A DNA stretch of 64,000 bases, taken from contig CACXMH010000012.1 of the NCBI GenBank assembly GCA_902768715.1, positions 1-64,000 on the forward strand, in the 5' to 3' direction. Position numbers and translations under genes: made by a program. Of the stretch, positions 3,282-59,427 are shown in pieces. Origin of the DNA: Fibrobacter succinogenes. GTDB lineage: Bacteria > Fibrobacterota > Fibrobacteria > Fibrobacterales > Fibrobacteraceae. The notes beneath the pieces are model-generated. The model had not been told where the DNA came from and did no database searches. It was given only the letters and a program-made list of their open reading frames with translations. Every line of letters begins with the position of its first letter. Positions within the stretch are counted from its first letter, which is position 1.

Positions 3282-3486
3282 GGCAGTGAGGTGTGAGGTG
3301 TGAGGTATGAGGTATGAGGGTTATTGAAAAAGAATTCGTCATGTTCGCCCATTCGACAAGCTCAGGGCAGGCTCCGGCGAACATCCGCTTACTGCAACCC
3401 AGCGGATCCCCGACCAAGTCGGGGATGACATTCCTCAAAGCGAAGCGACCTCAAATCCCTAGCCCCTAGCTCCTAGATCCTAACCC
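3282..3486 (+). repeat. Composite intergenic repeat between convergent genes, copy 1
   Basis: Starts with a TGAGGTG/TGAGGTA 7-base reiteration, then AAAAAGAATTCGTCATGTTC, a CCGCTTACTGCAACC stretch, a REP-like palindrome ending GGGGATGAC, the string CCTCAAAGCGAAGCGACCTC, and a CCTAGCCCCTAGCTCCTAGA-type array. The same block order recurs at 30509-30742 and 43578-43780. No gene is seen here. Confidence 0.8.
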
Positions 3487-11132: not shown

Positions 11133-11240
11133 AGTAGATAGGTAATAGGTAGTAGATTTTAGGGCTGGTGGGATCAAGAAGTATTAAAAGCTTCTTGATA
11201 CAGGCAATCCTAAAACCTATAACCTAAAACCTAAGACCTA
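11133..11240. repeat. TAGG/CCTA inverted array with hairpin upstream of uvrB
   Basis: Left arm GTAGATAGGTAATAGGTAGT, right arm CCTAAAACCTATAACCTAAA, imperfectly complementary. Between them is a clean stem ATCAAGAAG / CTTCTTGAT (about 11172-11198). No T-run follows, so this is not an ordinary terminator. It forms the 5' leader of uvrB and leaves no visible Shine-Dalgarno sequence. Confidence 0.6.
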
Positions 11241-29743: not shown

Positions 29744-30508
29744 ATGAAAAGTTTTGTATTTATTCTGATTACTATTCTAACGGCATTCGCCACCTCTAAT
29801 GCTGCGGAAACCTGTGCCGGTATCGAAGCAGGCACCAAGGCCTATAACGAAGGCGATTTCGAGCGAGCCGTTGACGAATGGCGAAGCTGTGCCGACAGCG
29901 GCATTAACGATGCTGACCTTTTCTACAATCTTGGGAACGCCTATTTCAGGAGCGGAAAGCTGGGATTCTCCATTTTCTACTACAAAAAAGCCCTCCGCCT
30001 TAGGGCCAACGACAGCGATATCCAGCATAACCTGAAATACGCCCAGGCCATGACCCGGGACAAGGTGGAAGAAGATTCCGAAGAAAACCCCATTCTGAAC
30101 GCCCTTTTCCAGGCGCATCACGCCATTTCTCTAAAGACGCAGCTCTGGATTATGCTCGGCATTTTCTGGGCCATAGCCATTGCCGCCGTGCTGACCAGAA
30201 TCAGCCTGCGTGAAAAGGCCCGGAACATTTTCACCGGAATCATTTTTGCGCTTACCATCGTCTTAGGAGTATTTGGCGCCAGTGCCGGCTACAAGATTTT
30301 TGTCCTGGAAACAGACATTACCGGAGTTGTCACCGCAAAGGACGCCGACGTGACCAGCGCTCCAAGCGACAAGTCCCAGACCCTGAACACCCTTTCCGAA
30401 GGAACTTCTTTCCAGGTGCTTTCTACCCAAGGAAATTTCGCCGAAATCCAGCTGGGCGAAAAAATCAAGGGGTTCGTCAAGCTCTCCGACGTAGGGATTG
30501 TGGAGTAG
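29744..30508 (+). CDS. batE: BatE-like TPR protein with C-terminal SH3-like domain
   Basis: 254 residues with a signal peptide (to about 20), tetratricopeptide helices (GTKAYNEGDFERAVDEWRSC ... LFYNLGNAYFRSGKLGFSIFYYKKALRL), two membrane helices (about 130-150 and 165-185) and a C-terminal bacterial SH3-like segment (VTSAPSDKSQTLNTLSEGTSFQVLSTQGNFAEIQL). This order is diagnostic for BatE-type proteins encoded after batD. It likely sits in the inner membrane with its TPR part facing the periplasm as a scaffold. Last gene of the pair; a composite repeat follows. Confidence 0.85.
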   Translation: MKSFVFILITILTAFATSNAAETCAGIEAGTKAYNEGDFERAVDEWRSCADSGINDADLFYNLGNAYFRSGKLGFSIFYYKKALRLRANDSDIQHNLKYAQAMTRDKVEEDSEENPILNALFQAHHAISLKTQLWIMLGIFWAIAIAAVLTRISLREKARNIFTGIIFALTIVLGVFGASAGYKIFVLETDITGVVTAKDADVTSAPSDKSQTLNTLSEGTSFQVLSTQGNFAEIQLGEKIKGFVKLSDVGIVE

Positions 30509-30742
30509 TTATGAGTTGTGAGTTGTGTGTTGTGAGGTATGGAAAAAGAATTCGTCATGTTCGCGCAGGCGAACATCCGCTTACTGCAATCTAGCGGATC
30601 CTCACTTTCGTGAGGATGACGAGAAAAGCCCGCGAGGGTGACAAATCTTGAAATCCGCAATCCCGAACCTCGAGCCTCATGCCTCAAAGCGAAGCGACCT
30701 CAAACCCCTAACCCCTAGATCCTAAATCCTATCCCCTAGATC
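30509..30742 (+). repeat. Composite intergenic repeat between convergent genes, copy 2
   Basis: Same order as copy 1: TGAGTTG/TGAGGTATG array, AAAAAGAATTCGTCATGTTC, GCGAACATCCGCTTACTGCA, a GGATCCTCACTTTCG/GTGAGGATGAC palindrome, CCTCAAAGCGAAGCGACCTC and a CCTAACCCCTAGATCCTAA array running to the sprA stop. Confidence 0.85.
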
Positions 30743-37799: not shown

Positions 37800-39692
37800 T
37801 TACAGGAACAGCTCGATTCCTCCGCGAACCTTTTCCCATGACTTGTTCTTCTTGCACAGGAAATCCATCATCTTTTCGTAGGTGGCGGTGTTGGCGAAGC
37901 CCTTCCAGAGCCTGCGTTCCACAGATTCGCCGCTGTCCTTGTCGATGGTGGTAATGGTGTCGTAGTAGGCCGGATTGTCCTTGAATTCGGTAATCAGGAT
38001 TCCCTTCAGGTCTTCCGTGTAGATACGGGAAGCATACTTGAGGATAGAATCGTTGAAGTTCAGTTCGTTTTCCACCAGCCATTCGAAATCCTGGATAGGA
38101 TCGCCATAGACAAGCCAGTGCTTGAGGGCGAGAGCCACCACCAGGTCCTTCACGGCGCTGCGGAAGATAAACTTGTCTTCGAGACGGCCATTGAAGGTAA
38201 TCTTGGTCAGCGGGTTATCGTCGTTGGCCTCGATAGAGACGCCCTTGCCCGGGGTCACGCGGCGGATCTTGATGGGGAGTCGGCTAAGGAGCTGCCATGC
38301 CTTGGTGAAGGCGATGGTCTTCCTGACAAAGTCCTTCTCCTTTTCGGGAGCCACACGCACGAAGGCGCCAAAGCAACGCTGGTACAGGGTTTCCTTGTCG
38401 AAGATGCAGTCGCTACTGCGGCATTCGCTGAGCTTGCCGTCCATCATAAAGAGGGTCTTGGCCAGTTCGGGGCGCATGCGGACTTCGAGCTTACGGGTAC
38501 GGGCCTTGAGGCGCACGCCGTCCTTATAAACATAGGTAAAGCCTTCTTCCTGGTAACGCTGCCAAATGAAGAACTGCAGGTCGTCGGCGGCACGCAGGTG
38601 GTAGCTGAACACCGGGTTCTGGCGGTTGTTGGCCATGGTCACCTGGTTCAAGAAGTTGTCAGCACCAGGATACGGCACCACCACCTTCACCAGCACCTTG
38701 GGGTTCACCGGCTTCTTGCTCTTCTTGGCATAGTGTTCGTAGGTAAACAGGGACTGGGCGCCGTTAATAATCTTCGGGCGTTCAATGTAGAGCACCTTCT
38801 TGCCATCCCGTTCCTTAAGGCGCAGGTCATCACCCGTAAGGGTCATACCGTTGTGCAAGAAGGGGAAATCGTCCACGTTCACGTTCTGGTCGTCGTTACG
38901 TTCCATAGTCTGGAAGGCATCGATCAGGGCCGCGTTGGTGTGGGTCAGGTTGCCCAGGTAAGTACGGATGTTGGAACTCACGATAGCCATGTTGTGCTTG
39001 GTCTTGAGACGCTTACCCAAGTTCACATGGTAGTCATAAATAGTGCGGATGGGGCAGAAACCGAGGAAAAGTTCGCCGTGATCGCTTGTGAGGTGCAAGG
39101 GATCGGAATCCATGACAATTTCCAGCTTGTCGTCGGCGCTGCGGAAATCGCGAGTCAGGTCGTCGTGTTCGGCGATAATGTCCAGCTTGGCCTTCACCTC
39201 GTTTTTCCAGATGGTGAGCTTGCGGCGCATGTCCTTGAGGGTGCGTTCCAGTTCAGAGTCGGTAATGTCGCGGGTAGCGCGGGTGCGGAGCACCGTAATC
39301 TCCAGAGTCTCCATGTAGGGGCGGCTTGCCGGAGTATCGTCGTCCTCTTCCTCGTCGTCATCGCTAATCTTATTGACAGCCCAGGGGTCAGCCTCTTCGC
39401 GGAGAGACATGAAGAAGGGGTTGGTGGGGTCGCTGGTGCGGAAAACGGCAATCTGGAGCTGTTTCAGGTCGGCATTCAGGTGAGAAACCACCTTCTCGAG
39501 GGGGGTATCCTCGTCCAGGAATATGAAGAATTCCATGAAACCCTGGGAGTACTGGAAGCCATGAAAGCATCCGTCCTCGTCCAGATTCAAGTGCCGAAGG
39601 GCCTTGATACGGTCATTAGGGTCATTGGGGTTCAAACTCAAGAGGCTAGCCACGAATGCTAGGCGTCGTTCCTGGGATTTTGTCAGTTCCAT
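37800..39692 (-). CDS. AIPR-family protein (candidate abortive-infection phage-resistance factor)
   Basis: 630 residues, cytosolic. The central region matches the AIPR pattern: SSNIRTYLGNL (about 240), then DDFPFLHNGMTLTGDDLRL, then IERPKIINGAQSLFTYEHY, then VVVPYPGADNFLNQVTMANNRQNPV. An acidic insert (SDDDEEEDDDTP) lies near residue 110. GAGGA precedes the ATG. AIPR proteins are linked to abortive infection, alone or beside restriction-modification genes; here no methylase or nuclease gene is adjacent. It is divergent from an LRR gene. Family assignment is by motif recall; the biological role is inferred. Confidence 0.72.
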   Translation of the reverse strand: MELTKSQERRLAFVASLLSLNPNDPNDRIKALRHLNLDEDGCFHGFQYSQGFMEFFIFLDEDTPLEKVVSHLNADLKQLQIAVFRTSDPTNPFFMSLREEADPWAVNKISDDDEEEDDDTPASRPYMETLEITVLRTRATRDITDSELERTLKDMRRKLTIWKNEVKAKLDIIAEHDDLTRDFRSADDKLEIVMDSDPLHLTSDHGELFLGFCPIRTIYDYHVNLGKRLKTKHNMAIVSSNIRTYLGNLTHTNAALIDAFQTMERNDDQNVNVDDFPFLHNGMTLTGDDLRLKERDGKKVLYIERPKIINGAQSLFTYEHYAKKSKKPVNPKVLVKVVVPYPGADNFLNQVTMANNRQNPVFSYHLRAADDLQFFIWQRYQEEGFTYVYKDGVRLKARTRKLEVRMRPELAKTLFMMDGKLSECRSSDCIFDKETLYQRCFGAFVRVAPEKEKDFVRKTIAFTKAWQLLSRLPIKIRRVTPGKGVSIEANDDNPLTKITFNGRLEDKFIFRSAVKDLVVALALKHWLVYGDPIQDFEWLVENELNFNDSILKYASRIYTEDLKGILITEFKDNPAYYDTITTIDKDSGESVERRLWKGFANTATYEKMMDFLCKKNKSWEKVRGGIELFL

Positions 39693-39801
39693 TTTTTCCT
39701 CAATTTTAGGCTTCTGCCATATTTTGCCATTAAAAATAGTTTCAAAAGCCTTACTTTGGGCATAAAAAATAGTAAATCTTAAAAAAAATTTCCACTTTGA
39801 C

Positions 39802-39845
39802 CACTATTTAGTGAACAAATGTGTAGTTTTTTGCTATTTTTAGCA
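39802..39845. promoter_or_regulatory. Two small inverted repeats between the AIPR and LRR genes
   Basis: CACTA-TT-TAGTG (39802-39813) and TGCTA-TTTT-TAGCA (39832-39845), 19 bases apart, in the 227-base AT-rich divergent spacer. They could be operator half-sites or short hairpins. No regulator gene is adjacent. Confidence 0.3.
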
Positions 39846-39919
39846 CATTTTAGGCGGCCAAGCCCTTTTCTTTCTCAAAAATGCTATGATTTATAAAGTG
39901 AGTATTATAGGAGAGTCTT

Positions 39920-40672
39920 ATGAACCTGCTCGATATTATTAATAAAGCCAAGGCCGAAAAGGCCAAAACCCTGGACCTATCCCAGCAGGGACTTCGCCTG
40001 TTACCCCCCGAACTTTTCGAAATCCAGTCCCTGGAAGAACTGAACCTGGACCGGAACAAGCTGGTGGAGCTCCCCGACGACATCGGGCTCCTGAAAAACC
40101 TGAAAAGCCTTTCCGTCAGCGAAAACGACCTGATGGAGCTTCCTGACACCATCGGGAACCTTACCGCCCTGGAACACCTTTACCTGGGCTACAACAGCCT
40201 GTCGGAGCTCCCCGCCACCGTCGGAAAGCTCACAAACCTCCATACGGTGAATATCGCAAAGAACCAGCTCCTGGAACTTCCCGACGAAATCGGCAACTGG
40301 ACCAAGGTGGTGAAACTCTCCCTCCACGACAACATGCTCACCACCATCCCCGATTCCGTCGGCAAGCTGAAGAGCCTGGTGAAGCTGTACCTGGACAACA
40401 ACGACCTGACCGAGGTCCCCGCCACCCTCGGGAACCTCGCAAGCCTCGAAATCCTGATGATTTCCGGCAACCAGCTGAGCGTGATTCCGCAGGAATTCGG
40501 CAAGCTTTCCAAGCTCCGGGAACTGGTGCTGGACGCAAACCAGCTGGAGACACTGCCCGAGGCCCTCGCCGACTGCAAGAGCCTCGAGACCATCTCCATT
40601 AACGAGAACCCCATGGAAGACGGCCTGCCTCGGGCTATCCTCGACAAGAAGGGGTTGAAGATAGACCAGTAG
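39920..40672 (+). CDS. Leucine-rich-repeat protein
   Basis: 250 residues, made almost wholly of about nine LRR units of 23 residues with the pattern LxxLxxLxLxxNxLxxLPxxIGxL (for example LEELNLDRNKLVELPDDIG and LEHLYLGYNSLSELPATVG). No signal peptide or membrane segment, so it should be cytosolic, unlike secreted LRR effectors. The regular LP-x-x-[IV]-G units resemble plant/PIRL-type LRRs and suggest a protein-binding solenoid. A good AGGAGA site lies before the ATG. The binding partner is unknown. Confidence 0.88.
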   Translation: MNLLDIINKAKAEKAKTLDLSQQGLRLLPPELFEIQSLEELNLDRNKLVELPDDIGLLKNLKSLSVSENDLMELPDTIGNLTALEHLYLGYNSLSELPATVGKLTNLHTVNIAKNQLLELPDEIGNWTKVVKLSLHDNMLTTIPDSVGKLKSLVKLYLDNNDLTEVPATLGNLASLEILMISGNQLSVIPQEFGKLSKLRELVLDANQLETLPEALADCKSLETISINENPMEDGLPRAILDKKGLKIDQ

Positions 40673-40673
40673 C

Positions 40674-40823
40674 TTTTTAGACGAGAGAACGCTCCACCTA
40701 CGGCGTCGCTACAGACGAAAGACGAAAGATATCTGGATAGAACCGCACGGATCTGTGATGAAAACCGAAAAAACAACCCCCGTCTTTCGTCTATCGTCTT
40801 TCGTCTATCGTCTATCGTCTTTC
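40674..40823. repeat. TTTAGACGAGAGAACGCTC-type element and CGTCTTTCGTCTATC array
   Basis: TTTTAGACGAGAGAACGCTC followed by GCTACAGACGAAAGACGAAA (to about 40730), then within the next gene a CGTCTTTCGTCTATCGTCTT array (40781-40823) complementary to the GACGAAAGACGAAAG part. The left piece is a close relative of the one inside uvrB (13310-13352). Confidence 0.8.
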
Positions 40824-42149
40824 GCCATTCTCTCCCTCTTCTTGCTTGCAGCCTGTGGGGACTTTATGGAGCCGGTGGAAAGCACTCCGGAGCCCACCGC
40901 CTACGAGTTCAACTACTGGCTTTTGAACCACACCTATCTGTACGAAGCGGAACTGAAAAATTTACCCGCGGTCGGGGACAGCATTCCCCTTTTATACTCC
41001 GCACTGGAAGACCGCTACACCCGATACTACCCTCCCTCCAAGAGCGATGCCGCCGAAACCCACATGAACACCTCTATCGTGGAAGGGGAATTGGGCATGG
41101 AGTACATGATTGTCATTGAAGAAGGACAAATCAGCAATTACCCCATCATCATTTCTAGAGTTTATGCAGACAGCCCCGCAGGTAGGGCCAATGTCCCCCG
41201 ATTTGGCAGGATTCTTGAAGCCAACGGCATTTCACTTGCCGGTCCAGAATCAAAATTCATTTACGATTCCATCGTGGATTATTCCGCTGAAATTTTCCTT
41301 AAGGTTTTTTTCAGCGACAGTATATACCATTTTGACTTGATTAAGGAAGACGTCTATACACCGACAGTGTTCCTGGACACCATTTCATCTGTCACTTTTA
41401 TAACCATCACCGAATTCAAGTCCTCTACTTCTGACAGGGAAAACGGGACATTTGGAGAACTCAAGGCATACATCGACTCCACATCCAACGTATCTGCTCC
41501 ACGTGTCCTGGATTTACGGAATAATCCCGGCGGGTTAATCTCCCAGTGCCTATCCGCTGCCGACCTTTTTGTCAAAGAGGGCGTTCTGTCCAGTCGAAAA
41601 TTTGTAACATTTGCACCAGATGGGAAAAGAGACATAAGAACCTCGACCAACATGGCAAAATCCGGTGACCCTGGTGAAAACGGGAAATTCATAATGCTTG
41701 CCAACAGAGCTTCCGCATCCTGTTCCGAAATTTTTATTGCAGCCCTCAAAGAACAAGGAAACATTCCTCTTGCGGGAGAAACCACTTTCGGAAAGGGAAT
41801 TGGCCAGAGTCAATGGAAAACCATAGAGGGAGGCTTCGCCGTTATTACCAACCTGGAATTTTTCACACCCAAGGGTAACTCTTACCATAAAAAAGGAATC
41901 AATCCCGACCACCCCTGTTCGGGAAGTCCTACACGAAATTGCGCTCTGGAGGTTATCGACCAACTGTTCGGAAGTGAAAATCCTGCCAAGGCTAACAAGG
42001 GTTTCCAGAAACTTTCAACAGAGCGACAAGCCGTACAGAACATTCTTCTGACATCAAAAGATGCAAGTCCAGTAACTAAATCGAACCTTATGACAGGTGG
42101 AGCCCTGGACACCTTGATAAACCACGTCAATTACCCCTACACCCCATAG
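40755..42149 (+). CDS. S41-family peptidase lipoprotein (first of a pair)
   Basis: Start is GTG 40755 or the adjacent ATG 40758. The signal peptide reads PVFRLSSFVYRLSSFAILSLFLLAAC, with lipobox LAAC; its n/h region is encoded by the CGTCTTTCGTCTATC repeat. A helical N-terminal part and a degenerate PDZ-like segment (ISNYPIIISRVYADSPAGRANVP) follow. The S41 core has LRNNPGG, the nucleophile Ser in ASASCSEI and the general-base Lys in TTFGKGIGQ, the Ser/Lys dyad of tail-specific proteases. 464 residues. Probably an envelope protease anchored by lipid. Only six bases separate it from a paralogue. Confidence 0.88.
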   Translation: MMKTEKTTPVFRLSSFVYRLSSFAILSLFLLAACGDFMEPVESTPEPTAYEFNYWLLNHTYLYEAELKNLPAVGDSIPLLYSALEDRYTRYYPPSKSDAAETHMNTSIVEGELGMEYMIVIEEGQISNYPIIISRVYADSPAGRANVPRFGRILEANGISLAGPESKFIYDSIVDYSAEIFLKVFFSDSIYHFDLIKEDVYTPTVFLDTISSVTFITITEFKSSTSDRENGTFGELKAYIDSTSNVSAPRVLDLRNNPGGLISQCLSAADLFVKEGVLSSRKFVTFAPDGKRDIRTSTNMAKSGDPGENGKFIMLANRASASCSEIFIAALKEQGNIPLAGETTFGKGIGQSQWKTIEGGFAVITNLEFFTPKGNSYHKKGINPDHPCSGSPTRNCALEVIDQLFGSENPAKANKGFQKLSTERQAVQNILLTSKDASPVTKSNLMTGGALDTLINHVNYPYTP

Positions 42150-42155
42150 GCCATC

Positions 42156-43577
42156 ATGAATCAGAAAAACATTCTTTTCTATGCCCTATCGGCAGCAACA
42201 CTCCTTTTTTGGTCGGCCTGTACAGTCAAACACGCCGACGACGAAATCGCCATGCCCTGCTTCGGCGACCACTGCGAAAATCAAATAAATGACGATGACA
42301 GGGTTCTTTCCGTCGCCGAGCAGGAAATGCTGGAGAACTATTACATCCTCTCCGTCTATTTCATCGATTCCAAAAAAAAGCTCGATGACATTAACCTGTA
42401 TATAGGCCAAGGTGAAAAAGCAGGTTTTTCTCCCGAGTATTACGAATATCCCGACATCTACTATATGTATAGCATGATGGGAGACGATTATACCCTGTAC
42501 TTTGGTCCCTACTATGCCAGCAAATACGATTTTAGTTCTTCCACAGACCCCATATATAATTTGGGAGTCAGTCGAGAATCTATCGATTCAAAAGTATTCA
42601 TTACCCAGGTTTTCCAGGACGGTCCTGGCGACAAGGCGGGTCTCAAGGCGGGCGACACCATCCTATCCGTCGGGACTACCGAGCCTGGCGACGTCGGAGC
42701 ATTCGATAGACTTACTTCTGGGAAAGACGGCGACGAAATAAAGCTTCGCGTTTTGAGAGGGACGGATACACTGGACATTTCCGCACAACTGTTCTGCTAC
42801 CTGGAGCCTACCGTATTTGCCAGTTTCAAAGATTCCATTCCCGTTATCAAGATTACAAGCTTTGAAACCAACAGCGCCACCAATTGTGCCGATGCAAATG
42901 ACCAAAACTCCGCCAAGGGTACAAAATACGAGGTCCAGTCGATACTCAGCAAGACCAGTGGCCCTACAATTATCGACCTTAGGGGAAATCCGGGCGGTTC
43001 CATTCCAGAGTGCATTGGAGCCGCCGAACAATTCCTTTCCAAAGGGGACTCCATCGTCATTCTGGAGTCCACGACCGTAGCCCCCGACTCTGTCAGCCAG
43101 ATGATTATCACAGAACGGATCGTCGCTACCGAAGACGGCGTTGGAAAGGGGCGTTATGTCGTATTCTTGGCAGATTCTGCAACCGCAAGTTGTTCAGAAA
43201 TTTTATTGGCCGGCGTCACCCGGAATCTGAAATCCCCTATTGTCGGTCAACAAACCTACGGAAAGGGAATCGGCCAGTATTACATACCCACATACGCCGG
43301 AGGCTACAGCATTGTCACGTCCTTAAGAATAAGCGACAAGGACTTCGTAACCTATCACGACAAGGGTTTCTTGCCCGATTACGACATTTCCGACTCCTTG
43401 AAAGCCCTGGAAAAAGCTGTAGAAATAGCCAAGCTAGGAAAAGAAAAGAGAACCAAGGGTTATGGTACAAAGGACCAGGGACATTTCAAAAACGCCCTTG
43501 CCAAAAAAGCAGGATCCAAAAACGCCTTGCCTAGAGGCGGAGCGTACAAGATTATAAAGAATCCGCTGATGAAGTAG
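42156..43577 (+). CDS. S41-family peptidase lipoprotein (second of a pair)
   Basis: 473 residues, lipobox WSAC after a hydrophobic signal (ILFYALSAATLLFWSAC). It has a clear PDZ domain (YNLGVSRESIDSKVFITQVFQDGPGDKAGLKAGDTILSVG, about residues 127-170) and an S41 catalytic part with LRGNPGG, Ser in ATASCSEI and Lys in QTYGKGIGQYY. It is co-transcribed with the preceding paralogue and organised alike, so they arose by duplication. The C-terminal ~50 residues are basic. The substrate is unknown; it may process surface or secreted proteins. Confidence 0.9.
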   Translation: MNQKNILFYALSAATLLFWSACTVKHADDEIAMPCFGDHCENQINDDDRVLSVAEQEMLENYYILSVYFIDSKKKLDDINLYIGQGEKAGFSPEYYEYPDIYYMYSMMGDDYTLYFGPYYASKYDFSSSTDPIYNLGVSRESIDSKVFITQVFQDGPGDKAGLKAGDTILSVGTTEPGDVGAFDRLTSGKDGDEIKLRVLRGTDTLDISAQLFCYLEPTVFASFKDSIPVIKITSFETNSATNCADANDQNSAKGTKYEVQSILSKTSGPTIIDLRGNPGGSIPECIGAAEQFLSKGDSIVILESTTVAPDSVSQMIITERIVATEDGVGKGRYVVFLADSATASCSEILLAGVTRNLKSPIVGQQTYGKGIGQYYIPTYAGGYSIVTSLRISDKDFVTYHDKGFLPDYDISDSLKALEKAVEIAKLGKEKRTKGYGTKDQGHFKNALAKKAGSKNALPRGGAYKIIKNPLMK

Positions 43578-43780
43578 TGAGTTATGAGTTATGAGTTGTG
43601 AGGTGTGAGGTGTGAGGTGCGAGTCGTCATCCTCACACAGGTGAGGATCCGCTTACTGCAATCTAGCAGATCCTCGCCTTGGTTCGACTTCGCTCACCAC
43701 AGGTCGCGAGGATGACATCCCTCAAAGCGAAGCGACCTCAAGCCACTAGCCCCTAGATTCTAAGCCCTAAGCCCTAGCCC
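43578..43780 (+). repeat. Composite intergenic repeat between convergent genes, copy 3
   Basis: TGAGTTATGAGTTGTGAGGT array, a GTCATCCTCACACAG/GTGAGGATCC palindrome, CCGCTTACTGCAATCTAGCA, a GATCCTCGCC ... GCGAGGATGAC palindrome with the interior TTGGTTCGACTTCGCTCACC, CCTCAAAGCGAAGCGACCTC, and CCTAGCCCCTAATCC-type units. The second palindrome with its interior also occurs inside uvrB at 13202-13250. Confidence 0.85.
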
Positions 43781-45106
43781 CTAATCCACCACCCGCATGT
43801 GGACCATCACGTCGGTGGTGTCGTTTGCCTTTACAGCAGGTGCAGCCTGAGTTAGCTCGATTTCCTTGCGAATTTCTGACACCTGTTTCTTGAGCCGAGC
43901 AAGGCGGGCTCCTTCTAGCTTGGGCGTTGCAATCATGGTCTTGGAAAGCGGGTTTATCCAGGCACCGTTGGCGTCCTTGAATCCAAAATGCAAGTGGGGT
44001 CCGGTGCTACGGCCCGTAGAGCCAACCCGCCCGATGGCCTGGCCCGGGGAGACTTTTGCGCCTACAGCCACACCCCTAGACTGCAGGTGCATGTACCAGC
44101 TTACGGAATTATCCCTGTGCTTGATGGCAATCTTGTTACCGCTATATTCATCGTAGCCCGATACGGTCACGTTCCCCTCAGCGACAGCATGAACCACAGT
44201 GCCTGCAGGAGCGCCATAGTCCACACCATAATGAACCTTGCGCTGACCAGTAATGGGGTGAATTCTGGAACCAAAGGAACTGGTAATACGAAGGTGTTCC
44301 AGCGGGTAGCGAAGCCCGTCAAAAACCAAAGCGTCGCCCGCTTCGGTATAGTGGGCATTGTAGGAACTATTGGGGTCTTCATCCTCATAGCGGAAAGCTT
44401 CATGGTGGCCCACAATCCTCCCGTCAAATTCGGCGTAAATGACCTTACCGCCCACCCAGATGGAATCCTGATAGTAGGAATCTTCCAGAAGCACACGGAA
44501 CCGGTCTCCGGCGCGGGCCAGCGGGAACGCCACCTTGCACTGAAGCACTCCGCTCACAATACCCACCATACGGCCAGGGATTCCCACCTTGAAAAGGATT
44601 CCGTTCAGCGTGCTGCCTTCTTCCAAGGCGCCCTCGTAAACGGACTGTTTCTTGACCACGGGCTTTTCGATAAGCTGGTAAGTGAATCCAGTATCCGTCT
44701 TGCTCACCAGATGAACCGTTATGGGGTTCGGCGCATAACGAAACCGCTGTACCCTGCCTGTCGAATCCACGGAGACATAAAAAATTTCACCTACACGGAG
44801 TTTGAATTCTACGCTATCCTGCATGGCGGTATAAACCTTGCCAAGATCCTCCTCCCCATGACTTACCTGGGCCTTGAGCCTTGTAAACAAGTGAAAGGGG
44901 CCCTCCCCCGCACGAACGGTATCCCGAATGACCCGGACATTGTGGACCAGGGCTTCTGCCGATGCAATTTCGGCATTCAGGGAATCCACGCGCGCCTGCA
45001 AGCCCGCACGTTCCGTTTTTAGACTCTGGATAATTTCTTCTTCGTTACAGGCGATAAACGGTAACGACAAAAACAAGGAAAGAAAAGCACGCAAGAAGAA
45101 TCTCAT
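43781..45106 (-). CDS. M23-family (LytM) metallopeptidase lipoprotein
   Basis: Start moved to ATG 45106, which gives MRFFLRAFLSLFLSLPFIAC with a lipobox ending at Cys20; the open frame begins earlier but is not a signal. A coiled coil (about 25-55, LKTERAGLQARVDSLNAEIASAEALV) and a beta-rich region follow. The M23 domain has HYGVDYGAPAGT, WYMHL and GPHLHFGF; the Zn ligands are His and Asp of HYGVD and the second His of HLHF. The catalytic set appears complete, so a peptidoglycan DD- or DL-endopeptidase is expected. It may act in the outer envelope near the S41 pair it faces. Confidence 0.92.
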   Translation of the reverse strand: MRFFLRAFLSLFLSLPFIACNEEEIIQSLKTERAGLQARVDSLNAEIASAEALVHNVRVIRDTVRAGEGPFHLFTRLKAQVSHGEEDLGKVYTAMQDSVEFKLRVGEIFYVSVDSTGRVQRFRYAPNPITVHLVSKTDTGFTYQLIEKPVVKKQSVYEGALEEGSTLNGILFKVGIPGRMVGIVSGVLQCKVAFPLARAGDRFRVLLEDSYYQDSIWVGGKVIYAEFDGRIVGHHEAFRYEDEDPNSSYNAHYTEAGDALVFDGLRYPLEHLRITSSFGSRIHPITGQRKVHYGVDYGAPAGTVVHAVAEGNVTVSGYDEYSGNKIAIKHRDNSVSWYMHLQSRGVAVGAKVSPGQAIGRVGSTGRSTGPHLHFGFKDANGAWINPLSKTMIATPKLEGARLARLKKQVSEIRKEIELTQAAPAVKANDTTDVMVHMRVVD

Positions 45107-45186
45107 AAGGCAAATATACATAATATAAAGCGACGCGTAACCGACAAGTCGGAGCATTCGACGGCATCAAATTCTAAATTAAGGCC

Positions 45187-45777
45187 ATGCGGACTTGGCC
45201 AACTATTCAATCATTCCTGCTATGTAGTGCAGCAATCTTCATAAGTGCCTGCTCCGTAAATCTTGTACAAGGAGACGGAAACAACGAACCTCTAACCGTA
45301 CCAGTAAATGCTACGGCGAATTCAGCTCCGCTTTTCAGTAAAATACCCCTGATTCTCGGGAACGATACCCTGTGGCTTTCGGAAAGCCTGAGGAAAGAAT
45401 ACGACCGCGCCGCCAACCAGGATATTTACCCCCGTGACAAATGCAACGGTTCAGCAAGCATCCTGGCACAAGTGGCACAGAACACCGAAGCCACCCCCTG
45501 GAGTATTCCTTTATTCGCAATCCCTTTCTGGCCTATAATGCCCGTGGACGAAACCTGGACCTACACACTGAAAACGCAAATCTATTGCGACGGCGTGCTA
45601 GTCAAGCAGGCCGAATACAAGGAAGAAGAAACTGTCAAGGCCTATCTTTACGGCAAATTGCGCAGTGACCTTCTGAACAACGCCTCCAAGGATATGCACC
45701 GCAAGCTAGTCCAGAGGCTAGCCTTTGAACTGAACTACCCCTACAACGCCGACATGGGCGTGCGTAGCGATTACTAA
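45187..45777 (+). CDS. Lipoprotein of unknown function
   Basis: 196 residues with signal and lipobox ISAC (residue 22), then SVNLVQG. The mature part contains two Cys (DKCNGS, IYCDGV) that could form a disulfide, and a hydrophobic stretch (WSIPLFAIPFWPIMPVDE) around residues 110-125. It ends nine bases before rsmI on the same strand, so the two may be co-transcribed. Family not recognised. Confidence 0.75.
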   Translation: MRTWPTIQSFLLCSAAIFISACSVNLVQGDGNNEPLTVPVNATANSAPLFSKIPLILGNDTLWLSESLRKEYDRAANQDIYPRDKCNGSASILAQVAQNTEATPWSIPLFAIPFWPIMPVDETWTYTLKTQIYCDGVLVKQAEYKEEETVKAYLYGKLRSDLLNNASKDMHRKLVQRLAFELNYPYNADMGVRSDY

Positions 45778-45786
45778 ATTTGGGTT

Positions 45787-46473
45787 ATGGCTCATACCCT
45801 GTACATTGTAGCGACCCCTATCGGGAACATGGAGGACATCACCTACCGTGCGGTCCGAACCCTGAAAGAAGTACCCCTGGTACTTGCCGAAGATACGCGC
45901 CACACGCGAATCCTCTTCGACCATTTCGGGATTTCCACCCCCATGGAAGCCTACCACGACTTCAACAAGGAAGCCGTTACTCCAAAATACGTGAGCTACC
46001 TGAAAGACCAGGGAGACATCGCCCTGGTCAGCGACGCGGGCACTCCGGGCATCGCCGACCCTGCCTTCAACCTGGTCCGGGAATGCGTTCGCGAAGGTAT
46101 TGACGTGCGGGCGGTCCCCGGTCCCTGCGCCATGGTGACGGCACTGGTCAGTAGCGGTATGCCCACGGACCACTTTGCCTTCCAGTACTTTTCGCCCAAG
46201 AAGAGCGCCCAGCGCCTGCACCTTCTGGAAAAACTGAAAGACGAAGAAGCCACCCAGATTTTTTACGCCAGCCCCCATAACGTGGACAAGTTCGTTGCCG
46301 AAATCCAGACGGTCTTCGGGGACATCAAGATTGCCCTGATGCGGGAGCTGACCAAAAAGTTCGAGGAACACCTGATTGGCACTCCCGCAGAAATCCTCGC
46401 CCATTTCAAGAGCCATCCGCCCAAAGGTGAGTTCGTGCTGATTTTCAACCCGAAGGACAAAAGCGGGCTGTGA
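45787..46473 (+). CDS. rsmI: 16S rRNA (cytidine-1402-2'-O)-methyltransferase
   Basis: Tetrapyrrole-methylase fold of 228 residues; with RsmH it makes m4Cm1402 in the ribosomal P site. Diagnostic sequences: LYIVATPIGNMEDITYRAVRTL, VLAEDTRHTRILFDHFGI, ALVSDAGTPGIADPAFNLV, VPGPCAMVTALVSSGMPTDHFAFQYF, then LMRELTKKFEEHLIG. It is slightly shorter than E. coli RsmI (~286) because the C-terminal HTH-like region is absent. The following lnt gene is separated by a TAGGTTTTAGGGGCTAGGAT-type array. Confidence 0.95.
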   Translation: MAHTLYIVATPIGNMEDITYRAVRTLKEVPLVLAEDTRHTRILFDHFGISTPMEAYHDFNKEAVTPKYVSYLKDQGDIALVSDAGTPGIADPAFNLVRECVREGIDVRAVPGPCAMVTALVSSGMPTDHFAFQYFSPKKSAQRLHLLEKLKDEEATQIFYASPHNVDKFVAEIQTVFGDIKIALMRELTKKFEEHLIGTPAEILAHFKSHPPKGEFVLIFNPKDKSGL

Positions 46474-46514
46474 GATTAGGTTTTAGGGGCTAGGATCTAG
46501 GGGCTAGATAACTA

Positions 46515-48452
46515 ATGGCTGATTTTTTGAACAGACTGAAATCGTGGATTGGGGCATTACCTGGAATGTACCGGATTTTTCTCGGCATTCTGTTCGTGGC
46601 CGAATTAGGCCTCTATCTGGTCACTCCCGACGAGCCTGGGCTTTACTCCTGGAAACCCCAGTTTATCCCTTTCATTGTCGCCCTCCCGTTTCTCTTTGTC
46701 AAGAGCGTGCGTAAGCCGTTCAACCGTTTTGTCTATAGTTACGCCCTCATCTCTTTTGCCTTTCTCGCCCTAGACTACCTGGCAGGCGGTCATGCGGGAC
46801 TCATCCAGATTTCTGTGCTGTTCATCCCCTTCGGACTTTACCTGCTGTTCCGTTTTGGCGTGTGGAATTTCAAGAGGCTTCGCGAAAAGGATTCCCGGAC
46901 AGCGCTGTTGCTTTCTACCATTGCCTGGGGCGCCATGGCCCTGGCGTTTCCGCCGCTCCCCCTGGGGCCTGCCGCCCTGCTGTTGCTTGTGCCCTGGTTC
47001 ATCGCCATGAACCGCTACAGCCGTAGTTCAGCCATTTTTGCCACCTTCTGGTCGGGCATGGTCTATAACGGCATCAACTACTACTGGATTTTCAACGTCA
47101 TGAACGTGGAGACGGCTCCATCGGCCATTATCTTCTTGGGCGTGGTGCTGTTGGTGGCCTTCTTCAGTTTCTACAGCGTGGTAGCGGCTTTCGTCTATAC
47201 CCTCGTCAAGGATATCCGCATCAAGGGGTGTCCGATTTTCTGGGGACTCTACCCCGTGTTTTATGCCGGGCTTGAAATGACCCGCACCCGCGGGGACTTC
47301 GCCTTCCCCTGGAGCCACCTGGGCTACGTGTTCGGCAACTACCTGGAACTTTTACAGGCCCTTTCTATCATCGGAATCTTCGGCTACACCACCCTAATTG
47401 TGGCAAGCAACATGCTGGTTGCAAATGCTTTGGGCAAGCCTGGTCTAAAAGCCAAGTGGCCTTTTGCGTTACCCGTCCTGATTTTTGCGATTCTCCTTAT
47501 TCATGGAAAAATCACCTTGTCCGCTCCCGAAGCGGCACCCTTCTACGGAAGCGATGGGGAGCACACGCCCCAAATTGCCATGGTGCAGCCCTGCATTCAG
47601 CAGGGTGAAAAATGGAGCAAGGAGCGATACGACCGAATTATCGACAAGACCCTCGACATGGTCCGGGACAGTGTCAAAGACGGAACTGACCTGATCATTT
47701 TGGCAGAAACAGCTATACCGGACCACATCCGTAGGCAGCCCGCTACGATTGTCAGGCTGCACAATGTCGCAAGCAGCATGAACGCTAGCATTCTGGTTGG
47801 CGCACTTGATTTCAAACGCATCAAGGAACCTGGCGCCGTGCGTCGATACGAGGTGTACAACGCCTCGTTCCTGTTCAGCCCCAACGACGGACGTTTTCCT
47901 CAACGCTATATCAAAAAGCATCTGGTTCCTTTCAGCGAAAGGATTCCTTTCGACGACATCTTCCCTATTTTGAACTACGTGGACCTGGGCGAAGGGGACT
48001 TTGTTCCCGGAAAGGAAACTCCTGTTTATGGTCCTTTCTTGTGGACACCTTTTATCTGCTACGACGCCATCTTTGGAGACCTGGTGCGGGAAGCCATCCG
48101 TGCAGGTTCTAGGTTCATGGTGAACATCACCAACGACGGATGGTTCGGCAGGAGTACCGCCCCCTACCAGCACTTGAACCTGGTGCGTTACCGCACCATC
48201 GAAAACGGCATGCCGGCGGCAAGGCTTGCCAACAGCGGAGTGTCCGTATTTATAGATCAGTATGGTCACATGGACCTGAACACGCCTATTTTTGAAGACG
48301 CCGTCATCCAGCGCAAGATGCAGTTGAAAACCAGGGACACCCTGTACCAGCATATCGGCGATTATCTTGAAACCGCTCTGCTCTGGTTCTTTGCAATTTA
48401 CTTGCTAGCGGCAATCGGATGCCGATTGAGATTCTCGCCTACGCGAGAATAA
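46515..48452 (+). CDS. lnt: Apolipoprotein N-acyltransferase with N-terminal membrane extension
   Basis: Inner-membrane enzyme that N-acylates lipoproteins, the last step of their maturation. 645 residues against a usual ~510. The surplus is an N-terminal block of ~130 residues with four extra membrane helices before the normal start (LLLSTIAWGAMALAFPPLPLG). The nitrilase-fold domain has Glu in LAETAIP, Lys in KKHLVPFSERIPF and Cys in FICYDAIFGD. GDFAFPWSHLGY and NDGWFGRSTAPYQHL are standard. The last residues (SPTRE) and the stop are supplied by a GATTCTCGCC/GCGAGAAT palindrome. The many lipoproteins in this window are its expected substrates. Confidence 0.93.
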   Translation: MADFLNRLKSWIGALPGMYRIFLGILFVAELGLYLVTPDEPGLYSWKPQFIPFIVALPFLFVKSVRKPFNRFVYSYALISFAFLALDYLAGGHAGLIQISVLFIPFGLYLLFRFGVWNFKRLREKDSRTALLLSTIAWGAMALAFPPLPLGPAALLLLVPWFIAMNRYSRSSAIFATFWSGMVYNGINYYWIFNVMNVETAPSAIIFLGVVLLVAFFSFYSVVAAFVYTLVKDIRIKGCPIFWGLYPVFYAGLEMTRTRGDFAFPWSHLGYVFGNYLELLQALSIIGIFGYTTLIVASNMLVANALGKPGLKAKWPFALPVLIFAILLIHGKITLSAPEAAPFYGSDGEHTPQIAMVQPCIQQGEKWSKERYDRIIDKTLDMVRDSVKDGTDLIILAETAIPDHIRRQPATIVRLHNVASSMNASILVGALDFKRIKEPGAVRRYEVYNASFLFSPNDGRFPQRYIKKHLVPFSERIPFDDIFPILNYVDLGEGDFVPGKETPVYGPFLWTPFICYDAIFGDLVREAIRAGSRFMVNITNDGWFGRSTAPYQHLNLVRYRTIENGMPAARLANSGVSVFIDQYGHMDLNTPIFEDAVIQRKMQLKTRDTLYQHIGDYLETALLWFFAIYLLAAIGCRLRFSPTRE

Positions 48453-48480
48453 CGAATATCGTTTTGCAAAACAACACAGA

Positions 48481-49128
48481 CTACAGCAAAAGCTGCGGCG
48501 GCCAGTGGCCCGCCTTGGGGCGTTCCTTGAATGTTACCCCGGGCATAAGATCCTTGAGTTTCAACGTCTGGGCAGGCGGAACGGCCCTGTCCATACGGCC
48601 GTAAACCACTTCAATTCCACTGCAATCCTCTAGAGGCGTCGAAATCTTGTTGCCCGCCAGATAAGTAATGCCCTTGGCCAGTTTCTCGGCGTTCATCTTC
48701 TTGGCGCAGTTCATCCAGTCGTCTTGCCACTCGCCGAATTCGTCTTCGAACTGTTCCGCAAAAGAATTCAGGCCCGGTTCCGTAGTCGTCTGCATCTGCC
48801 TTGCCATAAAGTGCAGGTTCGTTTCGGTCCAGTCGCTGTCTTCGTCACAGAAGTCCGCATAAGGCGAAAGCAAAATCCATCGCTGTGCCGACGGTTTTTT
48901 CTTGTAGTGCATGAGCAAGAGAAACGCACCCATACCGGAGCCTACCACCACATCGGCCTTGGAAAGTCCAGGAATCTTGTAAGGGTCATCCAGGTTGTCC
49001 GCCATAGTCTCGTAGGGCACAAAGGTATGGTCGGCAGAAGACTCCACTTCTGTCAAGTCGTCTTGCCATAACGACAAGTCCGACGCCCAGTCAGGCAACC
49101 AAACCCACTTTTCACTCGACTTCGCCAT
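48481..49128 (-). CDS. Alpha/beta-hydrolase-like protein
   Basis: 215 residues, cytosolic. It opens with WVWLPDWASDLSLWQDDL, the typical first strand of a BioH-like hydrolase. The nucleophile elbow reads GSGMG (about residues 63-67), a candidate acid lies in VVYGRMDRAVPPAQT, and a His in KAGHWPPQ ends the triad. The elbow is preceded by VVV, as in active members. An esterase such as a pimeloyl-ACP esterase is possible, but the next biotin gene (birA) is 10 kb away and no other biotin synthesis gene is present. Convergent with lnt. Confidence 0.6.
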   Translation of the reverse strand: MAKSSEKWVWLPDWASDLSLWQDDLTEVESSADHTFVPYETMADNLDDPYKIPGLSKADVVVGSGMGAFLLLMHYKKKPSAQRWILLSPYADFCDEDSDWTETNLHFMARQMQTTTEPGLNSFAEQFEDEFGEWQDDWMNCAKKMNAEKLAKGITYLAGNKISTPLEDCSGIEVVYGRMDRAVPPAQTLKLKDLMPGVTFKERPKAGHWPPQLLL

Positions 49129-49249
49129 AACCCAGATTAATCACCCTTTACTAAGACACTCCTAAAACGGATTTCTCTATAGAAAGATATATAGTGAAAT
49201 CAAGAAAAGAACATTTTTTTTGATTTTTTTTACTTTATGAGATAGATAT

Positions 49250-49864
49250 ATGCTTTTTGGCCGAAATTTCAGCATTTTTTTGATATTTATCACACTTTGC
49301 GCTTGGGGCGTATCCACAGCCGCCCCACTGAGACTTCATGACGAGAATAGAGTCCTAAGTGCAACCCAAACCCATTATTTTGAAAAACTGTCCAAAGAAC
49401 TAGAACAAAAAGCCGGATTCCGCCTGTCTGTAGTTCTGCTGGAAGACAGCCGGAACAAGCGAGATTTTTCGCCTGACAGTAACGAGATTCTTCTTTATAC
49501 GGCTTTCGTGCAACATTTGCATCATGTCCAACTCGGGAAAAATCTGGAGTCTTTCCTTCCGAAAAGCACCATCGAAAAGCTCCAACAGGAATACCTTTTC
49601 CCGGAATACAAGTCCGCCAGATATGACAAGGGCACATTACTGCTTGCCTACCACCTGTCAAACGAACTTGCAAAAGCAAAGGGCAAGACATTGGCTACAG
49701 AGCCTCCGGAATTTGAAAGCGCCGGCAGCCTCAATGCGGCAGGCTGGGTGTTTGTCGCATTCATCTTTTCGCTGGTGTTTTACGCCCTGTACAAAAGGGG
49801 ACGCCGCACCAGCGCCGTTTCCACCAGCAGGCGATTCCATTACGGACGGTTCGGCTGGAGGTAG
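49250..49864 (+). CDS. TPM-domain-like membrane protein
   Basis: 204 residues: a signal peptide or N-terminal helix (to about 27), then a periplasmic alpha/beta region (LHDENRVLSATQTHYFEKLSKELEQKAGFRLSVVLLED ... LGKNLESFLPKSTIEKLQQEYLFPEYKSARYDKGTLLLAYHL). This has the order of the TPM (YgcG) domain but is divergent and lacks most of its acidic metal residues. A membrane helix near 168-188 and a short basic tail follow. It starts a small plus-strand group with the two following genes. Role unknown. Confidence 0.6.
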   Translation: MLFGRNFSIFLIFITLCAWGVSTAAPLRLHDENRVLSATQTHYFEKLSKELEQKAGFRLSVVLLEDSRNKRDFSPDSNEILLYTAFVQHLHHVQLGKNLESFLPKSTIEKLQQEYLFPEYKSARYDKGTLLLAYHLSNELAKAKGKTLATEPPEFESAGSLNAAGWVFVAFIFSLVFYALYKRGRRTSAVSTSRRFHYGRFGWR

Positions 49865-49869
49865 TTTTT

Positions 49870-50496
49870 ATGAAAAGAATATTGAGTGTTCAGGAATTAA
49901 AGCAGTCTCCCTGGCCCGGCAGATTTACGGAAACTTTCGGAGCAAACCTAGTTTCCGCATTCCTTTACGGGGACTGTCTGGAAGAAGGATTTAGCGCCCT
50001 GGAAAGGCCCTGGACCGTGGCCTTCATATTGAAAGATGCTTCTGCTACGGAGGTCGACAAGCTCAAATCCTGGAGCAAGAAGGCCTTGCGCGAAGGGGTA
50101 GAATTCTCCTATGTTTTTTCCAGTGCCGAGACCCTCTCGAACCTGGAAACTTTCCCGCTGGAATTCCTGGAAATGTCCTGCCGGAACCAGGTCCTGTGCG
50201 GTATCACTCCTCTAGAAGGGTTCAGCCCCAACCGGGAAGCCCTTGCGACGCAGTGCCTGCGGGAATGGAATGCATTCCTGTTCCACAGGCGTCTTGACAC
50301 CAAGCCCAATGCTGCCGACTACATGCAGGAACTCTCGTCTCTGCTAAGCGGCATCTACTACCTGAAAAACGGGAACTATCCTGAAAAATGGCAGCAGGTT
50401 CTCGACACTTTCCCGGAACTCAAGTCGTCGGGAAACCTGCTGGACGCCTTGCAGAACACCATAACAAAAATATGCACTTGCCACCATCATCCCTAA
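49870..50496 (+). CDS. Nucleotidyltransferase-fold-like protein, probably inactive
   Basis: 208 residues, five bases after the TPM-like gene. FGANLVSAFLYGDCLEEGFSALERPWTVAFIL has the shape of a minimal nucleotidyltransferase (hydrophobic strand, LYG[SD], then a D-x-D strand), but the catalytic GS and the Asp pair are missing. The C-terminal half (from about 115) is helical, with LREWNAFLFHRRLDTKP and YMQELSSLLSGIYYLK, as in HEPN-like or kanamycin-type partners. It ends CTCHHHP. Function not assigned. Confidence 0.5.
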   Translation: MKRILSVQELKQSPWPGRFTETFGANLVSAFLYGDCLEEGFSALERPWTVAFILKDASATEVDKLKSWSKKALREGVEFSYVFSSAETLSNLETFPLEFLEMSCRNQVLCGITPLEGFSPNREALATQCLREWNAFLFHRRLDTKPNAADYMQELSSLLSGIYYLKNGNYPEKWQQVLDTFPELKSSGNLLDALQNTITKICTCHHHP

Positions 50497-50526
50497 TACC
50501 TACCACCTATAACCTACAACCTGTTA

Positions 50527-56596: not shown

Positions 56597-56697
56597 TAGG
56601 TTTTAGGTTTTAGGTTGTAGGTAGTAGGTATTAGGGCAGAATTGGCAAGACAGATTCTTCGCCCCTAAAACCTAAGACCTAACACCTACAACCTATT
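56597..56697. repeat. TAGGTTTT/CCTAAAACC inverted array
   Basis: Left arm TAGGTTTTAGGTTTTAGGTT plus GTAGGTAGTAGGTATTAGGG; right arm CCCCTAAAACCTAAGACCTA plus ACACCTACAACCTA. The arms are imperfectly complementary over about 35 bases, with a ~30-base unique centre. The right arm ends at the stop of the DnaQ-like gene. Confidence 0.75.
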
Positions 56698-58964: not shown

Positions 58965-59387
58965 ATGGAATTCAAGATTCCACACATTTTTGCCGTTTTA
59001 TTTGTGGCATCGGCTCTCTGGGCTCAGGACTTGTCCAAGCCCGTAAGCGACGTGCAGATTTTCCGCCCCGAGAAGCGGGAATCCAACATCCAGCTGGTGG
59101 ATTCCAGCAAGGCCAACACGGTACTTCTCAACGTGGACATCTTCGGTAGCCTGGATGTAGGGTCTTACTATATCTTGTGGGACATGGTGGACCTTTCCGA
59201 AGACATCAAGAAGATGATGACCACCAGGGATTTCGCACGTGACGAATTCTTTATGCAGAACATCGACCGTGAGCAGTTCGAACAGGAACGCATATTGCAG
59301 TTGTTCGAAGACCGCAAGCGGGAGTTCTTCGCCATCTTCCCCGAAGAAGCCCTGAAGGAATTGCAAGAGCAGCAAAATGAGGAGTGA
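58965..59387 (+). CDS. Secreted or periplasmic hypothetical protein
   Basis: 140 residues with a signal peptide (FAVLFVASALWAQ). The mature part is acidic, with a predicted beta-strand (NTVLLNVDIFGSLDVGSYYILW) and a long charged helix at the C-terminus (DREQFEQERILQLFEDRKREFFAIFPEEALKELQEQQNEE). No family recognised. The start of the next gene lies a few tens of bases past its end, in a TTCGGAATTCGGA-type repeat. Confidence 0.65.
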   Translation: MEFKIPHIFAVLFVASALWAQDLSKPVSDVQIFRPEKRESNIQLVDSSKANTVLLNVDIFGSLDVGSYYILWDMVDLSEDIKKMMTTRDFARDEFFMQNIDREQFEQERILQLFEDRKREFFAIFPEEALKELQEQQNEE

Positions 59388-59427
59388 TTCGGAATTCGGA
59401 TTTCAGAATTCGGAATTAGCGCCTAAC

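What the first reader, a model, noticed from the sequence alone, without database searches (positions are those of the whole stretch)
40716..40830. Lipoprotein signal peptide encoded by a short repeat
The n/h region FRLSSFVYRLSSFA of the first S41 lipoprotein is a CGTCTTTCGTCTATC array. The complementary GACGAAAGACGAAAG lies about 50 bases upstream, so the mRNA leader could form a hairpin across the start codon. A repeat may have created or rebuilt the export signal and at the same time gated translation.
Basis: partly seen in the sequence, partly recalled or inferred. Interest (0 to 1): 0.7.

Follow-up and report, generated by a model that had tools for sequence, protein, structure and literature searches.

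The report
Heptamer repeat element inside signal peptide
In this Fibrobacter-like bacterium, one arm of a common intergenic inverted repeat built from 7-base units has run into the start of a lipoprotein gene and now encodes part of its export signal, and related species have refilled the same spot with different repeats, so the export signal is repeatedly rewritten by 'spacer' DNA.

Summary
A 6.3-copy CGTCTWT array (40781-40824) encodes residues 9-22 of the S41 lipoprotein, and its complement AGACGAAAGACGAAAGA (40713-40729) lies 51 bases upstream. It is not a one-off. The genome carries about one period-7 array per 6 kb (134 in 861 kb; 0-4 for control lags), nearly all intergenic, in at least eight unit families, usually as inverted pairs with fixed polarity (G-rich arm first, 26:1). 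Here the 5' arm also holds a dispersed module, GACGARAGAACG-hairpin-CTACAGACGARAG, found in 35 of 41 congeneric genomes, whose hairpin covaries strongly. A sister species (93-97% identical across most of the window) has an unrelated heptamer family in exactly the block 40674-40823. Other orthologues carry further families or none. A second exported-protein locus repeats the pattern. In the sample, all five N-terminal arrays without an alternative start belong to exported proteins. So a repeat rebuilt the front of the signal peptide; the hydrophobic core and lipobox are shared with orthologues. Translation gating is not supported: the start codon lies in the loop, the fold is weak here (z -1.5), and inverted arms are general to these elements. 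Nearest precedent: Xanthomonas/Nostoc intergenic heptamer pairs. No RAYT-type transposase was found in this genome.

The parts
39920..40672 (+). Upstream leucine-rich-repeat protein gene; the swapped block begins right after its stop codon
40674..40823 (+). Block with no detected homology to sister species G016, although the flanks are 97% (37806-40673) and 93% (40824-50522) identical: the whole intergenic cassette plus the coding array
40679..40728 (+). Dispersed 5' module: AGACGAGAGAACG, short internal hairpin region (ACGC...GCGT), CTACAGACGAAAGACGAAAG. Reverse strand reads GTAG before the hairpin. Best paralogue in the genome is C9:13104-13163 (92% identical)
40713..40729 (+). 5' (G-rich) heptamer arm, AGACGAA x2.4, complementary to the coding array
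40755..40760 (+). Start codons GTG (40755) and ATG (40758), in the loop between the two arms; no clear Shine-Dalgarno sequence
40781..40824 (+). 3' (C-rich) heptamer arm, CGTCTWT x6.3, encoding residues 9-22 of the signal peptide (n-region and start of h-region)
40824..40856 (+). Hydrophobic core and lipobox AILSLFLLAAC (Cys codon 40854-40856), shared with orthologues and not repeat-encoded
40758..42149 (+). S41-family peptidase lipoprotein gene

Best explanation
The two complementary tracts are the arms of one member of a dispersed, rapidly turned-over family of intergenic inverted repeats built from 7-base units (shown). The element occupies the gap between the LRR gene and the S41 gene, and its 3' C-rich arm overlaps the first codons of the S41 gene (shown). 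Because 7 is 1 mod 3, a CGTCTTT array reads as the same stop-free heptapeptide cycle RLSSFVF in all three frames, with periodic Arg and hydrophobic residues. Such an arm can therefore be read into a signal peptide without destroying it, since the n-region only needs positive charge and the h-region only needs hydrophobicity (inferred from signal-peptide biology). The start codon lies inside the element and the lipobox-proximal core outside it. The RNA hairpin is a by-product of the element's inverted architecture, not a dedicated translational switch (inferred). How these elements spread and swap families is unknown; slippage plus recombination or mobilisation acting on single-stranded hairpins is the working guess.
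For: Genome-wide: 134 period-7 arrays in 861 kb (114 intergenic, 13 inside genes, 7 straddling) against 0-4 for lags 5, 8, 10, 11, 13, 16 and 17. Adjacent pairs are G-rich then C-rich 26 times and the reverse once. Arms match their own partner better than others' (p 1.5e-4), and position follows polarity (odds ratio 23, p 3e-13). Turnover: array-free intergenic gaps are 94% identical between G000 and G016, gaps with arrays in both about 52%, with other heptamer families at several orthologous sites. The breakpoints here are the upstream stop codon and the last array base. Orthologous signal peptides: CACATTC units in G016; CTAGTAA/CTTAGAA/CTCAGAA in G022 and G002; CGTCTTT/CGTCTCT in G018, G008 and G013; none in G004, G001, G019 and G014. 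Own-species complementarity across the start exceeds cross-species (8.3 vs 6.3, 0 of 5000 permutations). Paralogue at C9:13104-13200 with the same 5' module and a CTCTCGT arm encoding SLVSRLSSLV of another signal peptide; its orthologues replace that part with other repeats or nothing. Module hairpin covariation: 98.3% of cells paired (68.6% shuffled), score 0.648 vs 0.116.
Against: The mobilising or diversifying agent is not identified. The window's own internal hairpin is a weak version (4 bp). Most genomes, including this one, are drafts; an assembly error at a repeat cannot be fully excluded, but independent assemblies show the same kind of structure. Export by this peptide was not tested, and no signal-peptide predictor was available. 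The gene caller was home-made. The analysis was exploratory, with many tests run and no correction applied.
Confidence: 0.8

Rival explanations
1. One reading: the inverted arms form an mRNA hairpin selected to gate translation of the lipoprotein.
For: The arms can pair: 14.6 of 17 bases of the 5' arm are predicted paired with the coding array. One orthologous leader is very stable (z -7.15). Own-species arms match better than cross-species.
Against: The start codon is in the loop, and removing the pairing in silico does not open it. z is only -1.53 here. Array-bearing gaps are as frequent between convergent genes as elsewhere (p 0.69). Several orthologues have neither arm nor array.
Confidence: 0.1
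2. Phase-variable contingency locus: loss or gain of one 7-base unit shifts the frame and turns the lipoprotein on or off.
For: The unit is 7 bases (1 mod 3) and lies between the start codon and the lipobox.
Against: Units alternate TTT/TAT, which should limit slippage. G018 and G008 have the same start-to-Cys length (33 aa) with only substitutions. Most arrays are intergenic, where copy number cannot shift a frame. No population data.
Confidence: 0.05
3. Local slippage in a hydrophobic coding stretch, with a chance complement upstream.
For: Tandem arrays can arise by slippage.
Against: The upstream arm is part of a dispersed module with a 92% identical paralogue elsewhere and copies in 35 of 41 genomes. 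The inverted pairing and polarity are genome-wide.
Confidence: 0.03

Closest known systems
Intergenic G-rich heptameric repeats of Xanthomonas (GGGAATC) and Nostoc (GGGGA(T/C)T) (PMC4692102)
   Same: Hundreds of heterogeneous heptamer arrays, about 90% intergenic, often as close pairs in convergent orientation (G-rich arm first), varying between related species at the same genes.
   Different: Here there are at least eight unrelated unit families, families are exchanged at one site between sister species, many units cannot form G-quadruplexes, one family carries a covarying internal hairpin, there is no depletion between divergent genes, and arms encode signal peptides.
REP/BIME palindromes tagged GTAG or CGTC (PMC3733652)
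   Same: Dispersed intergenic palindromes, dimers of inverted copies, occasional intragenic copies. The reverse strand of the module reads GTAG directly before a hairpin.
   Different: Stem sequence varies freely, flanks are heptamer arrays, and copy number does not track a Y1 transposase. No RAYT found.
Beggiatoaceae/cyanobacterial TAACTGA heptamer repeats (PMC4679880)
   Same: Short intergenic heptamer direct repeats, many near start codons.
   Different: Single unit, direct orientation, usually just upstream of the start codon; only one inverted case reported in the genome studied.
Rickettsia palindromic elements (RPE)
   Same: Palindromic repeats that enter coding sequence in frame (PMC3733652 notes RPE-1 at protein N-termini expressed in vivo).
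   Different: RPEs are not heptamer-based (own knowledge); here coding use centres on signal peptides.

Membership tests
Intergenic heptameric inverted-pair repeats (Xanthomonas/Nostoc type) | Period exactly 7 with heterogeneous units | tested here: met
Intergenic heptameric inverted-pair repeats (Xanthomonas/Nostoc type) | Mostly intergenic, in convergent (G-rich arm first) pairs | tested here: met
Intergenic heptameric inverted-pair repeats (Xanthomonas/Nostoc type) | Runs of G able to form quadruplexes | tested here: not met
   GACGARA, TGTGNNN and TTCGGAW units lack runs of three G; only some units (TAGGGGY) have them
REP elements with RAYT | GTAG-type tetranucleotide directly 5' of a hairpin | tested here: met
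   Reverse strand of the GACGA module reads GTAG then the stem
REP elements with RAYT | Cognate REP-associated tyrosine transposase in the genome | tested here: not met
   No Y1_Tnp (PF01797) in G000; 12 of 41 genomes have one; the five read (two of them partial) look like IS200-type TnpA by eye; no correlation with module copy number, rho 0.15, p 0.36
MITE | Terminal inverted repeats | tested here: met
   Inverted heptamer arms
MITE | Target-site duplication and a parent transposon | not tested
   Breakpoints against G016 are swaps, not clean insertions; no parent element sought beyond Y1_Tnp
Phase-variable contingency locus | Length variation of the array within a population | not testable with these tools
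   One genome per species held
Lipoprotein signal peptide (SPII) | Positive n-region, h-region, lipobox with invariant Cys | tested here: met
   MKTEKTTPVFRLSSFVYRLSSFAILSLFLLAAC by inspection; Cys aligned in 23 of the 24 loci examined (the 24th was missed by the script but reads LFGCSDF by eye); no SP predictor run

The most novel reading that the evidence does not exclude
Fibrobacter has an unrecognised activity that inserts, extends and exchanges heptamer-based inverted repeats at gene boundaries, with structure kept while sequence changes (covarying hairpins, whole-family swaps between species about 95% identical in coding sequence). Because it acts at gene starts, it continually rewrites the N-termini of exported proteins.
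Probability: 0.3. Interest if true: 0.75.

Novelty: new variant of a known kind. Interest (0 to 1): 0.55.

Why it matters
It gives a concrete natural case of non-coding repeat DNA being read into a functional protein part, replicated across orthologues and at a second gene. It shows signal peptides as a soft landing zone for repeats that cross a start codon. The sister-species swaps make an open question testable: what creates and exchanges 7-base intergenic repeats, already seen in xanthomonads, cyanobacteria and Beggiatoaceae. It also warns annotators that signal peptides and start sites in this genus can be repeat-derived and unalignable.

Tried and rejected
RAYT-driven REP mobilisation: suggested by GTAG before the hairpin, but no Y1_Tnp in G000 or in the most module-rich genomes, those found look like IS200 TnpA, and there is no copy-number correlation. 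Four of 18 Y1 matches (one in each of four genomes) do have a module in the fetched flank, a weak lead. Rfam: no match up to E 1 in 40000-44000. Terminator-only or promoter-only role: rejected, because array presence does not differ between convergent, divergent and codirectional gaps. Dedicated translational hairpin: not supported. First arm-complementarity permutation did not normalise for length and was not conclusive; redone. Literature: the searches combining Fibrobacter with heptanucleotide, short tandem repeats or REP terms returned nothing relevant by title and abstract, and none of the four papers searched in full names Fibrobacter; the library holds open-licence papers only.

Full report
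What was claimed and what is there. Both are present. The array spans 40781-40824 (period 7, 6.3 copies) and the complement 40713-40729. Chance does not explain it: 9 matches to the two-unit pattern against 0.25 expected. The ORF is an S41 peptidase and the array lies between its only usable starts (40755/40758) and the lipobox Cys (codon 40854-40856), so it is coding.

It is one of many. Lag 7 is the outstanding short repeat period in this window. In 861 kb of this genome there are 134 period-7 arrays, 114 of them intergenic although non-coding DNA is only 18.5% of the sample; control lags that are not multiples of three give 0-4. The units fall into at least eight families by eye (TAGGTNN, TAGGATC/TAGGGGY, GACGARA, TGTGNNN, TTCGGAW, TGAGKTN, TAGTNAC, CGAGGYT). 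Neighbouring arrays form inverted pairs with a fixed polarity: G-rich arm, then C-rich arm, 26 times against once the other way. The arms match their own partner (p 1.5e-4). Presence does not differ between convergent (11/53), divergent (22/81) and codirectional (48/188) gaps (p 0.69), which argues against a purely terminator or promoter role.

The element here. The 5' arm belongs to a longer dispersed module, GACGARAGAACG-hairpin-CTACAGACGARAG. It occurs in 35 of 41 congeneric genomes, up to 47 copies each, with no reversed-pattern control hits. In 46 distinct copies with an 11-base interior, the five-pair stem is formed in 98.3% of cells, with 57 double changes (17 expected by shuffling) and a covariation score of 0.648 against 0.116. 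The pattern fixes only the outermost pair, so the inner pairs are free evidence, although the length choice favours hairpins of that size; over 96 distinct interiors of all lengths, 73 have a stem of at least 4 bp against about 8% of shuffles. The window copy has a weaker internal stem. Its best paralogue in the genome (C9:13104-13163, 92%) also precedes an exported-protein gene whose signal peptide begins SLVSRLSSLV, encoded by a CTCTCGT arm.

Turnover. G016 is a close relative: 93-97% identical across most of the window, and the same contig as MAG CAMKMX010000014.1, uncultured Fibrobacter. Alignment breaks at 40673 and resumes at 40824, that is, from the LRR stop codon to the last array base. 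In G016 that block holds CCACATT units. At other sites the families also differ, for example TAGGTTT versus TAGGGGC/TAGGATT at 56.6 kb and ATTCGGA versus GTGTAAG-type at 59.4 kb. Gaps without arrays are 94% identical (n 23); gaps with arrays in both genomes have a median of 52% (n 7). The numbers are small, but the contrast is visible in the sequences.

Orthologues. Across 24 loci: CGTCTYT arrays in the signal peptide with GACGARAG upstream in G000, G018, G008 and G013, and a short trace in G005. CTAGTAA-type units occur in G022 and G002, CACATT-type in G016, G017 and G003. Several species have a plain 16-18 residue signal with no array. Thus the n-region is replaceable while the core and lipobox persist. 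At the second locus (mature start AEDYF), five of the orthologues read, including this genome's own copy, carry CTCTCGT-type arrays; the others carry other repeats, unrelated sequence or almost nothing. In the 861 kb sample, all five N-terminal arrays with no alternative downstream start belong to exported proteins (judged by eye; small number).

Gating. The arms can pair, but the start lies in the loop. Disrupting the 5' arm in silico lowers, not raises, accessibility, and the leader is only 1.5 sd more stable than dinucleotide shuffles, against 7.2 sd in one orthologue. Because pairing arms are general to these elements, wherever they sit, the simplest reading is that the hairpin comes with the element. 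An incidental effect on expression remains possible.

Known kinds. The nearest precedent is the Xanthomonas GGGAATC repeats, also heptameric, intergenic and often in convergent pairs (PMC4692102). REP elements share the GTAG-hairpin signature on the reverse strand, but no RAYT was found: Y1_Tnp is absent from G000, the five members read from elsewhere look IS200-like, and there is no correlation with copy number. I therefore do not file it as a REP.

Limits. Home-made gene calls, partial genome sample, draft genomes, no signal-peptide predictor, no population data. Many comparisons were made after seeing the data; the p-values are descriptive.

Noticed in passing
window 3286-3319, 5591-5617, 11209-11240, 30507-30534, 43578-43623, 56597-56635 with 56664-56695, 59387-59417: Other period-7 arrays of different units; 56597/56664 is a clean inverted pair (TAGGTTT / CCTAAAA) replaced by another family in G016.
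   Followed up: partly
L065:13561-13591, L067:12626-12657, L077:5639-5675, L078:15590-15628: TTAGACGAGAGACGAGAG arrays well inside called genes, adding LDERRETRDER-like stretches in frame; possible in-frame insertions to check against orthologues.
   Followed up: no
L204:2571, L208:2044, L211:3016, L216:672: A GACGA module lies in the fetched flank of four of 18 Y1_Tnp matches (IS200-like by eye), more than copy number would suggest; partly expected because both favour intergenic-rich DNA.
   Followed up: partly
L179, L193, L195 (upstream of the AEDYF protein): Signal-peptide regions that appear to be made from GTCATTGCGAG/GTCATCC-type palindromes rather than heptamers.
   Followed up: no
module interiors: Stem loops are mostly TNC on the listed strand, i.e. 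GNA triloops closed by C-G on the other strand, a form known from general knowledge to be very stable in single-stranded DNA.
   Followed up: partly
L102:2497-4068: Lipoprotein whose signal peptide MSIISRVISGWWLVVGVFLAAC is encoded by AGTGGTT-type units in the G-rich orientation.
   Followed up: no
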